From Candidatus Pacearchaeota archaeon (GTDB taxonomy: Archaea; Nanobdellota; Nanobdellia; Pacearchaeales; GW2011-AR1), in contig JAGLQO010000004.1 in NCBI GenBank assembly GCA_023136775.1, forward strand, positions 1-51,748: a stretch of DNA of 51,748 nt. Reading direction: 5' to 3'. A model generated the notes under the pieces. It saw only the letters and a program-made list of their open reading frames with translations, did not search any database and was not told the origin of the DNA. Numbering within the stretch: position 1 is the first letter of the stretch; each line of letters starts with the position of its first letter. A program made the translations under genes and the position numbers. This document shows, in pieces, positions 14,452-50,270 of the stretch.

Positions 14452-14577
14452 TTGACATTTTCGCGTGGTCGCGAAAATCGTCAAGGGAAATTCTGCAGAA
14501 TTTCTAGATTCCGAACCCCTTACCGTCGAGGCCGCAGAGGGTTCGATTCAAGTGAAGGGAATTTGTTTCAAATTCCC
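14452..14577 (+). repeat. Structured dispersed element, copy 1
   Basis: H1 TTTTCGCG-tggt-CGCGAAAA; H2 GAAATTC-tgca-GAATTTC; H3 CGAACCC-(cttaccgtcgaggccgcaga)-GGGTTCG; H4 GGGAATTT-gtttc-AAATTCCC. Confidence 0.9.
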
Positions 14578-25768: not shown

Positions 25769-25924
25769 TTGACATTTTTCCGTGGTCGCAAAAATCGTCA
25801 GGAGAAATCCACACAGGATTTCAGATTCCAGACCGCTTACCGTCGAGGCCGCAGACGGTCTGATACATTAAGGGAATTTCGTCATTTGACGCGCCCAGTT
25901 ACGAATCTTCGGGGCGAAATTCCC
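25769..25924 (+). repeat. Structured dispersed element, copy 2
   Basis: H2 GAAATCC-acaca-GGATTTC; H3 CAGACCG-(cttaccgtcgaggccgcaga)-CGGTCTG; H4 GGGAATTTC...GAAATTCCC; begins right after DHH stop. Confidence 0.9.
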
Positions 25925-26069: not shown

Positions 26070-26192
26070 TGGGAATTTGGAACAAATTCCCTCGATATAT
26101 CGAATCGTCTGCGGCCTCGACGGTAAGGGATTCGGAATTTAGAAATCCCTGCGGATTTCACCCAACGATTTTTTCACCAGAAAAAATGTTGA
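26070..26192 (-). repeat. Structured dispersed element, copy 3 (inverted)
   Basis: Minus strand: TCAACATTTTTTCTGGTGAAAAAATCGTTGG...CGAATCc-cttaccgtcgaggccgcaga-cGATTCG...GGGAATTTgttccAAATTCCC. Confidence 0.9.
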
Positions 26193-27584: not shown

Positions 27585-27640
27585 GATTAATATTTTAGGC
27601 TCCCTTTTTAGAAAAGGTTCCCTGGAATCAAAATCAAATA

Positions 27641-27689
27641 GTTTTAATCTAAAATAAATTTTTTATAAAAAATTGATTTTAGATTAAAC
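27641..27689. repeat. Long near-perfect palindrome
   Basis: gttttaatctaaaataaattttttataaaaaattgattttagattaaac. Confidence 0.75.
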
Positions 27690-27697
27690 AATATATG

Positions 27698-27760
27698 GCG
27701 AAATTGAATTTCTTAACGCGCCTGTCCAGAGGACAACCTGTCGCTAAAATTTAATTTCGC
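27698..27760. repeat. Copy B of structured core repeat with extended closing stem
   Basis: GCGAAATTGAATTT...core...AAATTTAATTTCGC. Confidence 0.8.
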
Positions 27761-27839
27761 ATGCTTGGCTGCTTTTGTTATTTTGTAACGAGAGCGAGCG
27801 AATAAATATGAGGAGCGTAAGCTTCTCTAAGTGAGGGCT

Positions 27840-44691: not shown

Positions 44692-45474
44692 ATGATAGTA
44701 AAACCCGAATTAATAAAAAAACTGAAAGGACATTTTGATTTGAACATTTACGAGACTAAGGTCTGGTTAGCTTTGCTTTCAAAAGGAATTTCTTCTGCTG
44801 GAGAGATTGCTGAGATTAGTGGAGTTCCACGTTCTAGGACTTATGATGTTTTAGAATCTTTAGAGAAGCGAGGATTTGTTATTCAAAAGCTTGGGAAACC
44901 TGTGAAGTATATCGCTGTTAGACCTGAAGTTGTTATTGAGAAGTTGAAGAATAATACTAATCAAGAGGCTGAGGACAGAATTAAGACGCTTTCTAACTTG
45001 AAGGATACGACTGAATATAAGGAACTGAATGAATTACATAAGACTGGTGTTGACCCGATTAAGAATCATGAGCTTTCAACTTCTATCAAGGGTCGGAGTA
45101 ATCTTTATGTTCAAATGAGAGCGGTTATGGAATCTTCTGAAAGATCTGTTTATTTGACTTCTTCTGCTTATGAATTGTCTTCTAAGTTAAAAATGTTTAA
45201 GGATACTTTTGCAAAATTGGCGAAGAGAAATGTTAATATTAAAGTTATGATTGGTGACGACGAAGACGAAGCTAAAAAACTTTCTAAGAAACTTGGCGTT
45301 GAAATTCGATCAAGACCAATTCACGCTCGATTTGTAATCTCAGATAAAACTGAATTGATTTTTACGATTAAACCAAACAATGTTCATGAAGATTTTGATT
45401 ATGGTGTTTGGATTAATTCTCCATTCTTTACAAATTCTTTGGCTTATATGTTTGATTTGGCGTGGAAGAATTAA
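44692..45474 (+). CDS. TrmB-family transcriptional regulator
   Basis: NIYETKVWLALLSKGISSAGEIAEISGVPRSRTYDVLESLEKRGFV. Confidence 0.88.
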   Translation: MIVKPELIKKLKGHFDLNIYETKVWLALLSKGISSAGEIAEISGVPRSRTYDVLESLEKRGFVIQKLGKPVKYIAVRPEVVIEKLKNNTNQEAEDRIKTLSNLKDTTEYKELNELHKTGVDPIKNHELSTSIKGRSNLYVQMRAVMESSERSVYLTSSAYELSSKLKMFKDTFAKLAKRNVNIKVMIGDDEDEAKKLSKKLGVEIRSRPIHARFVISDKTELIFTIKPNNVHEDFDYGVWINSPFFTNSLAYMFDLAWKN

Positions 45475-45666
45475 CATTTTTTTCTGGTTTCCGCCTCACT
45501 GGCACACCACTTTGCGAAGCGGCGAAATCGTTAGGGGAAATCCACACAGGATTTCAGATTCCAAATCCCTTACCGACTAGCGCACCCTCACTGATATATA
45601 TTTTTTAGGTTGGGGCAGACCCTCGCAGATGATTTGATTTATTGAGGGAATTTATTCTAAATTCCC
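45475..45666 (+). repeat. Structured dispersed element, copy 4, with internal insertions
   Basis: H2 GAAATCCacacaGGATTTC; H3 split cttaccg...cgcaga; H4 GGGAATTTattctAAATTCCC; starts right after TrmB stop. Confidence 0.85.
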
Positions 45667-49002: not shown

Positions 49003-49383
49003 CTATTTCTTTAAGCCTAAATCTTCTATGTCAATTAAATATTTTCCTTCTTGGATTTTAAATACAATTGGGCGACGATTCATTAAGGAAACTATATCAA
49101 TTTCAAACTTTCCTGGACTTGAAATTTTTACACTTTCTAAATCTAAAATAACTGGTTTATCATCGTCTTCTATTTTTAAAATACTTCTAACATCTTGCTC
49201 AACTTGTTTTTTATCAACTGTATCAAATTCTGGGATTGGAATTTCTTTTTGTTCTTTTATTCTAGCTACTTGTTCATCTCTAATATAGAAAAAGAATTTA
49301 CCGCCACAACTAGAACATCCTTCAAGTATTTCTTTACTTGCGGCTTCTATTATTTTACTGCAATGTACGCATTGGTGTGGCAT
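49003..49383 (-). CDS. Zn-ribbon protein (OapC/ArvC-like)
   Basis: QCVHCSKIIEAASKEILEGCSSCGGKFFFYI. Confidence 0.7.
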   Translation of the reverse strand: MPHQCVHCSKIIEAASKEILEGCSSCGGKFFFYIRDEQVARIKEQKEIPIPEFDTVDKKQVEQDVRSILKIEDDDKPVILDLESVKISSPGKFEIDIVSLMNRRPIVFKIQEGKYLIDIEDLGLKK

Positions 49384-49558
49384 AGAAAAAGAAACCTCTC
49401 AAAGTATAAAAAACTAACTAAAAGCTATGGAGCGAATGAAATTCGCGATTGTGTTGCCAAGCTGGCAGTCTGTGTTTTTTTAGGACGGAGTCCGTGAAGA
49501 AAAATCCAGCTGCAAAATATGATAATGAGCGAAGCGAATTATCTTAGATTAATGTTTT

Positions 49559-49666
49559 TTATTTTCTCTGCAACATAAATTCGATTTTCTTTGGATCTTG
49601 TTTTATGTCTTTTACAACCGAGGCTGGACCGATGATTGTTATTGCGTCTTGTTCTCCGACTAGAAT
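49559..49666 (-). pseudogene. Duplicated 3' end of the DUF2073 gene
   Basis: 107 nt identical to 49837-49943 except one base; retains ...KIEFMLQRK*. Confidence 0.95.
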
Positions 49667-49672
49667 ACTATA

Positions 49673-49795
49673 TTGACATTTTTTCTGGTGAAAAAATCGT
49701 CAGAGAGAATCCACACAGGATTCTAAATTCCAGACCGCTTACCGTCAAGGCCGCAGACTGGTCTGATACATGGAGGGAATTTATTCTAAATTCCC
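49673..49795 (+). repeat. Structured dispersed element, copy 5
   Basis: H1 TTTTTTctggtgAAAAAA; H2 GAGAATCCacacaGGATTCT; H3 CCAGACC-gcttaccgtcaaggccgcagact-GGTCTG; H4 GGGAATTTattctAAATTCCC. Confidence 0.9.
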
Positions 49796-49835
49796 GACTG
49801 GTGCAGCTTCGCTATATAATCTAAGAATGCTAGTG

Positions 49836-50270
49836 TTATTTTCTCTGCAACATGAATTCGATTTTCTTTGGATCTTGTTTTATGTCTTTTACAACCGAGG
49901 CTGGACCGATGATTGTTATTGCGTCTTGTTCTCCGACTAGAATTTTTGCTATATTGTGTCTAATTCTGTCGAATAATTTTTGATGTTCGTTTTCTCCAGA
50001 GATTGCTGCAATTTCAACTCCTTGGAAATTTTCAACATTGCCAATTAACATCATAGAATTTTCAATCAATCTAACTTCTTCGTCGGCTGTTAATTTTCCT
50101 TGAAGAATAACAATTTTTTGATCAAGAACTGCACTCATTATTTTTTTAATTCTGCCAATTGTATCTTCTTTGGCTATTTCAGAATATGGCATAAAATGTA
50201 TTGTCAAATCTTTACTAGACTTCTTATTCACCTTTTTACTTTTTTTCTTTGCCATATTTTTAAATCTCAA
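49836..50270 (-). CDS. DUF2073 (OapB/ArvB-like) protein
   Basis: ILQGKLTADEEVRLIENSMMLI...FQGVEIAAIS...ITIIGPASVVKDIKQDPKKIEF. Confidence 0.8.
   Translation of the reverse strand: MRFKNMAKKKSKKVNKKSSKDLTIHFMPYSEIAKEDTIGRIKKIMSAVLDQKIVILQGKLTADEEVRLIENSMMLIGNVENFQGVEIAAISGENEHQKLFDRIRHNIAKILVGEQDAITIIGPASVVKDIKQDPKKIEFMLQRK

What the first reader, a model, noticed from the sequence alone, without database searches (positions are those of the whole stretch)
49559..49943. Element copy 5 is flanked by a 107-bp direct duplication of the DUF2073 gene's 3' end
49560-49666 and 49837-49943 differ at one base, and both encode the same C-terminus ending EFMLQRK*. The element lies between them. Insertion left the functional gene end intact and pushed a spare 3' fragment outward, suggesting a mobilisation or duplication mechanism that regenerates gene ends, and a recent event.
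Basis: seen in the sequence. Interest (0 to 1): 0.8.

Follow-up and report, generated by a model that had tools for sequence, protein, structure and literature searches.

The report
Hairpin element with long target-site duplication
In this archaeal genome, small non-coding hairpin elements insert between genes and copy 46-143 bp of the target on their two sides, so the duplicated gene end is an unusually long, variable target-site duplication rather than a device that regenerates genes.

Summary
In detail: 49559-49666 and 49836-49943 are 108-nt direct repeats with one synonymous difference, on either side of a structured non-coding element (E, core 49673-49795 +). The element inserted 3' of oapB (DUF2073). 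E is a family of about 76 copies in this 1.2-Mb genome. It has a sharp 5' end and hairpins conserved by compensatory changes, and it matches no Rfam family, phage or plasmid. The duplication is not unique: six E insertions, and six insertions of a second, unrelated hairpin family (F, about 25 copies), have direct repeats of 46-143 bp (77-100% identical) at the element's 5' end (12 of 97 copies, against 0 of 300 control sites). The duplicated DNA may be a gene's 3' end (either orientation), a gene start with its promoter, or a tRNA end. It is therefore a long, variable-length target-site duplication. Genes stay intact because insertions that broke them would have been lost. Best mechanism: insertion at two widely spaced nicks followed by fill-in, possibly target-primed; the enzyme is unknown, and no reverse transcriptase was found. 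Main rival: capture of elements during double-strand-break repair. One relative (G022) has an oapB gene-end duplication without E, which favours the rival.

The parts
49559..49666 (-). D1: spare copy of the oapB 3' end (35 codons + stop), left target-site duplication, abutting the 5' end of the element
49667..49672 (+). 5' junction: ACTATA; the intact target continues TTTTGCTATATTG, sharing CTATATTG with the element's 5' end (microhomology)
   Evidence: sequence
49673..49795 (+). E core: hairpins P1 (49673-49703), P2 (49706-49724), P3 (49731-49765), P4 (49775-49795)
49796..49835 (+). E 3' tail (short type) plus a few nt of oapB 3' flank; the exact right end of E is uncertain (about 49815-49835)
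49836..49943 (-). D2: intact 3' end of oapB, right target-site duplication
49836..50255 (-). oapB (DUF2073, PF09846), intact
49420..49540 (-). E2: fragment of another E-type element (P4-like hairpin + type-c tail), lacking P1-P3, between D1 and oapC
49003..49383 (-). oapC (PF09845); in four relatives it lies 30-41 nt after oapB
14452..14577 (+). other E copy
25769..25890 (+). other E copy
26071..26192 (-). other E copy, facing the previous one
45471..45666 (+). other E copy, with extra hairpin modules inserted in P1 and P3
27596..27761 (+). copy of the second hairpin family F

Best explanation
The 107/108-bp repeat is a long target-site duplication. A non-autonomous, protein-less hairpin element (E) was inserted where the two target strands had been nicked about 108 nt apart, one nick just 3' of oapB and the other inside the gene's last 108 nt. 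Filling in the two long single-stranded ends duplicated the stretch between the nicks on both sides of E. SHOWN: E and a second family F have defined 5' ends, and long direct repeats of differing length (46-143 bp, 77-100% identical) adjoin those 5' ends at 12 insertions; genes remain intact in one of the two repeat copies where this could be judged. INFERRED: staggered nicking and fill-in. Also inferred, with less confidence: the copy is primed from the 3' end of D1 (target-primed), because the element's 5' end is constant while 3' tails vary, and microhomology lies at the D1/E junction. The enzyme is not identified; it may be missing from the assembly (87.5% complete) or supplied by another replicon. 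The gene end stays intact through selection, not regeneration.
For: Repeats adjoin the E 5' end within 2-9 nt at C33 (108 bp, 99%), C15:40183 (129 bp, 97.7%), C23 (74 bp, 100%), C22 (46 bp, 100%), C35:12291 (113 bp, 81%) and C35:12585 (75 bp, 84%). F insertions show the same with 90-93, 111, 141, 140, 56-60 and 53-60 bp. Controls: 0 of 300 pseudo-sites, Fisher p = 2.6e-8. In a scan of 284 kb for local direct repeats, 7 of 20 pairs flank E and 3 flank F. At C35 two nested E insertions give D1-E1-D2-E2-D3(gene). E has a sharp 5' edge: information jumps from 0.0 bit at -2 to 1.5 bits at 0 in 65 copies; tail b also ends sharply. Variable duplication length argues against a fixed-stagger transposase. 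Four relatives have oapB and oapC 30-41 nt apart, with neither element nor duplication.
Against: Most copies (85 of 97) show no long duplication; decay with age is assumed, not shown. No reverse transcriptase domain was found in the genome, and the Y1 transposases that are present are not known to make target duplications. The relative G022 has the oapB 3' end duplicated around a 41-nt non-E insert, so duplication can occur without E. A few nt of unexplained sequence lie between D1 and E and between the E tail and D2. No empty site from the same species was available. One F event (C35:5287) is less clean, because its repeats include an E tail and a tRNA.
Confidence: 0.72

Rival explanations
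1. Host double-strand-break repair made the duplication. Two nicks tens of bp apart gave a break with long overhangs; fill-in plus template switching or filler capture joined the ends around whatever sequence was at hand, often an abundant hairpin element. E and F would then be passengers, not transposing elements.
For: Variable lengths, junction microhomology and small extra bases are typical of this; small tandem duplications at breaks with ssDNA protrusions are documented in animal cells (PMC8355091). G022 shows an oapB gene-end duplication around a non-repeated 41-nt insert.
Against: Fillers should have random ends, but E begins at the same base in 65 of 76 copies and the tails fall into a few sharp classes. 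One family amplified to 76 copies while nearly absent from relatives looks like mobility.
Confidence: 0.18
2. A tandem duplication of the gene end came first and E later inserted at its junction.
For: Tandem duplications of gene ends occur (G022).
Against: The element lies at the edge of the repeats in 12 insertions of two unrelated families; repeated coincidence is very unlikely.
Confidence: 0.04
3. Site-specific recombination: E arrived on a circle carrying a gene 3' end and recombined with the chromosome, restoring the gene as integrative elements do at tRNA genes.
For: The gene end is intact and a spare end lies outside.
Against: Each insertion duplicates a different local sequence of different length, including gene starts and a sense gene on the other side; no shared att core is visible.
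Confidence: 0.03
4. Assembly artefact of the metagenome bin.
For: The genome is a 38-contig assembly and some contigs break at elements.
Against: Repeat pairs at many loci with 0-23% divergence and unique flanks on both sides cannot all be assembly errors.
Confidence: 0.03

Closest known systems
Non-LTR retrotransposons and SINEs (target-primed reverse transcription)
   Same: Protein-less structured elements, variable-length target-site duplications, one constant end and one variable end, truncated copies.
   Different: Typical duplications there are about 7-20 bp (background knowledge), not 46-143; no reverse transcriptase found here; archaeal host.
Bacterial structured interspersed repeats (bcr1, ERIC, BOX, Correia elements)
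   Same: 100-200 nt, intergenic, many copies, folded, modular, non-coding.
   Different: Those with known target duplications have short fixed ones (2-5 bp; background knowledge); no sequence match to any Rfam family.
IS200/IS605 elements and their non-autonomous derivatives
   Same: Hairpin ends; Y1 transposases are present in this genome and an IS605-like element seems to have inserted into some E copies.
   Different: IS200/IS605 insertion makes no target duplication (background knowledge); here 46-143 bp.
Tandem duplications from break repair; transposed genes with flanking repeats (PMC8355091, PMC2869330)
   Same: Inserted DNA or joints flanked by direct repeats of variable length taken from the target.
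   Different: No defined element ends or high-copy family in those cases; eukaryotic repair proteins.

Membership tests
Retroposon / SINE-like element (TPRT) | variable-length target-site duplications | tested here: met
   46-143 bp at 12 insertions
Retroposon / SINE-like element (TPRT) | a reverse transcriptase able to mobilise it in the genome | tested here: not met
   PF00078 gives no match in the assembly, 87.5% complete
Retroposon / SINE-like element (TPRT) | constant priming end, variable other end | tested here: inconclusive
   constant 5' edge and three tail classes, but tails are classes, not random truncations
IS200/IS605-derived element | insertion without target duplication | tested here: not met
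   long duplications
DDE-transposase MITE | short duplication of fixed length | tested here: not met
   lengths range from 46 to 143 bp
DDE-transposase MITE | terminal inverted repeats | not tested
   a weak TTGACAT/ATGTTAT likeness was seen by eye only
Known Rfam RNA (HEARO, group I/II intron, etc.) | match to covariance model | tested here: not met
   no relevant match for E or F
tyrosine-recombinase integrative element | constant att core shared by all insertions | tested here: not met
   a different local sequence is duplicated each time

The most novel reading that the evidence does not exclude
Archaeal hairpin elements of at least two unrelated families share an undescribed insertion machinery that cuts the two target strands 46-143 nt apart (or primes copying at one nick), giving long variable target-site duplications of a kind not known to me in archaea, and their hairpin arms are kept complementary after insertion.
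Probability: 0.3. Interest if true: 0.85.

Novelty: new variant of a known kind. Interest (0 to 1): 0.62.

Why it matters
Prokaryotic mobile elements normally make short, fixed target duplications or none; duplications of about 50-140 bp point to an insertion chemistry not described, to my knowledge, for archaea, or to an unusual break-repair route. In a reduced 1.2-Mb genome these insertions also explain how compact intergenic regions grow and how spare gene ends, gene starts and tRNA pieces arise. The recent insertions (97-100% identical repeats) suggest activity that could be seen in populations.

Tried and rejected
Rfam at gathering score on the window and at permissive score on E and F loci: no relevant family. 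A P3 pattern against GTDB genomes and IMG/VR gave scattered hits in unrelated hosts that look like chance; one IMG/VR hit scored only E = 0.33 with the model. Phage and plasmid collections: none. Reverse transcriptase in the own genome: none. Deciding the RNA strand from G-U against A-C mismatches: uninformative (4 against 6); the minus strand folds more stably in 49 of 62 copies, which is only weak evidence. Searching G022 for further copies of its 41-nt insert: none. Flanking repeats at the G125 copies: none that adjoins the element. Paper searches found no description of this family or of such long duplications in archaea.

Full report
Observation. Positions 49559-49666 and 49836-49943 are direct repeats of 108 nt with one difference. 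The right copy is the 3' end of an intact gene on the minus strand, oapB (DUF2073, PF09846). The left copy encodes the same last 35 residues. Between them lies a non-coding element, E, whose core is 49673-49795 on the plus strand. The next gene is oapC. In four relatives oapB and oapC are 30-41 nt apart; here they are 452 bp apart. Part of that gap is a fragment of a second E-type element on the minus strand, 49420-49540.

What E is. blastn finds about 43 copies in the genome, and a covariance model built from 35 copies finds 76 at E <= 0.01. E is a chain of hairpins. On the alignment, 14 of 21 modelled pairs have compensatory changes, 97.8% of cells are paired, and no shuffle reaches the observed covariation. 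Two further hairpins (P2, P4) vary in the same compensatory way between copies. The 5' end is sharp: sequence information jumps at one base in 65 copies. There are at least three kinds of 3' tail. E is rare elsewhere: weak or few matches in four related genomes, none in phages or plasmids, none in Rfam.

The duplication is general. Comparing left and right flanks of each E copy gives six insertions with direct repeats of 46-129 bp (81-100% identical), all adjoining the element's 5' end within 2-9 nt. One locus (C35) holds two nested insertions, with three copies of the gene end. Of 300 control sites, 15 had any repeat and none of 46 bp or more adjoined the site. A scan of 284 kb for local direct repeats then showed pairs around another interspersed hairpin family, F. 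F has about 25 copies and six insertions with repeats of about 56-143 bp (77-97%) at its 5' end. Pooled: 12 of 97 copies against 0 of 300 controls, p = 2.6e-8. The copies are related to one another, so p is only a guide.

Not a gene-end device. The duplicated DNA is a gene 3' end in antisense orientation to E in several cases, including oapB, a 417-aa and a 311-aa ORF. At C22 it is the end of a sense gene on the left, where D1 is the intact copy. At two F insertions it is a gene start with its upstream region, one reading MLKLYN..IYTCGPT, the cysteinyl-tRNA synthetase N-terminus by eye. At another it includes part of a tRNA-Ser. Selection against gene-breaking insertions explains why one copy is intact.

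Mechanism. Lengths vary widely between insertions, so a transposase with fixed stagger is unlikely. The simplest scheme is two nicks 46-143 nt apart on opposite strands, insertion, and fill-in. The constant 5' edge, variable tails and microhomology at D1/E (for example CTATATTG in C33, TAATATC in C23) would fit copying primed at the D1 end, but no reverse transcriptase domain was found. Break repair with capture of element DNA is the main rival and is helped by G022, where the oapB end is duplicated twice around a 41-nt insert that occurs nowhere else in that genome.

A further oddity. The four youngest E insertions (repeats 97.7-100%) differ from each other by 15-22%, so they did not come from one master copy. 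In the four oldest insertions (repeats 77-84%), the hairpins found hold 98 Watson-Crick pairs and one mismatch, although neighbouring duplicated DNA has diverged by about 20%. The hairpin finder favours intact stems, so the contrast is overstated, but it suggests that the hairpins are kept complementary after insertion, by selection on each copy or by arm-to-arm correction. One-sided changes (G-U type) are almost absent: 6 cells against 78 two-sided, which fits DNA-level correction better than RNA evolution. This is inference.

Limits. No reads, no second strain, and an assembly 87.5% complete. Background statements about duplication lengths of known elements are from general knowledge, not from papers read here. 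Of the two papers cited, only the abstracts and outlines were read.

Noticed in passing
window 27596-27761; G000 C15:33090-33291, C15:16963-17128 and about 22 more (L181-L209): Second interspersed hairpin family F (starts AGGCTCCCTTTTAGAAAAAGG), with a 50-nt hairpin whose arms stay complementary while the sequence varies; also flanked by long direct repeats.
   Followed up: yes
G000 C12:21093-21690 (L037): Possible third family (TTTTAGCCACTAACTC...ACAAACCTGCGG), two copies inside a pair of 63-bp direct repeats (87%).
   Followed up: partly
L068 1308-1586 (genome G022): oapB 3' end present three times around two copies of a 41-nt insert, without E; the insert is not repeated elsewhere in that genome.
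   Followed up: yes
E copies genome-wide (alignment A2): Pairs change on both sides with almost no one-sided intermediates; old insertions keep nearly perfect hairpins. May reflect palindrome correction or strong selection.
   Followed up: partly
G000 contig ends C7:10658, C16:7739, C6:2, C21:2, C19:36422: Contigs end in or near E at P2, joined to sequence resembling an IS200/IS605 end (GCCTACCTCGTCTTTCAAGGCGGGGAG / GGGAGGATGTCA): another element seems to target E.
   Followed up: no
window 45471-45666, C15:5453-5613, C34:71048-71206 and others: Extra modules inserted in hairpin loops of E (e.g. GCACCCTCACTGATATATATTTTTTAGGTTGGGGCAGACCCTC), reused in different hairpins and tails.
   Followed up: no
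L209 (C35:4999-5521): Truncated tRNA-Ser-like copy beside an intact tRNA-Ser (TGA), with an altered anticodon arm, inside an F duplication.
   Followed up: partly
several E copies, e.g. C35:607, C34:81745, C19:9994: A TATA-box-like TTTATAAA lies about 8-12 nt before the E 5' end in many copies, perhaps because insertions just upstream of promoters are tolerated.
   Followed up: no
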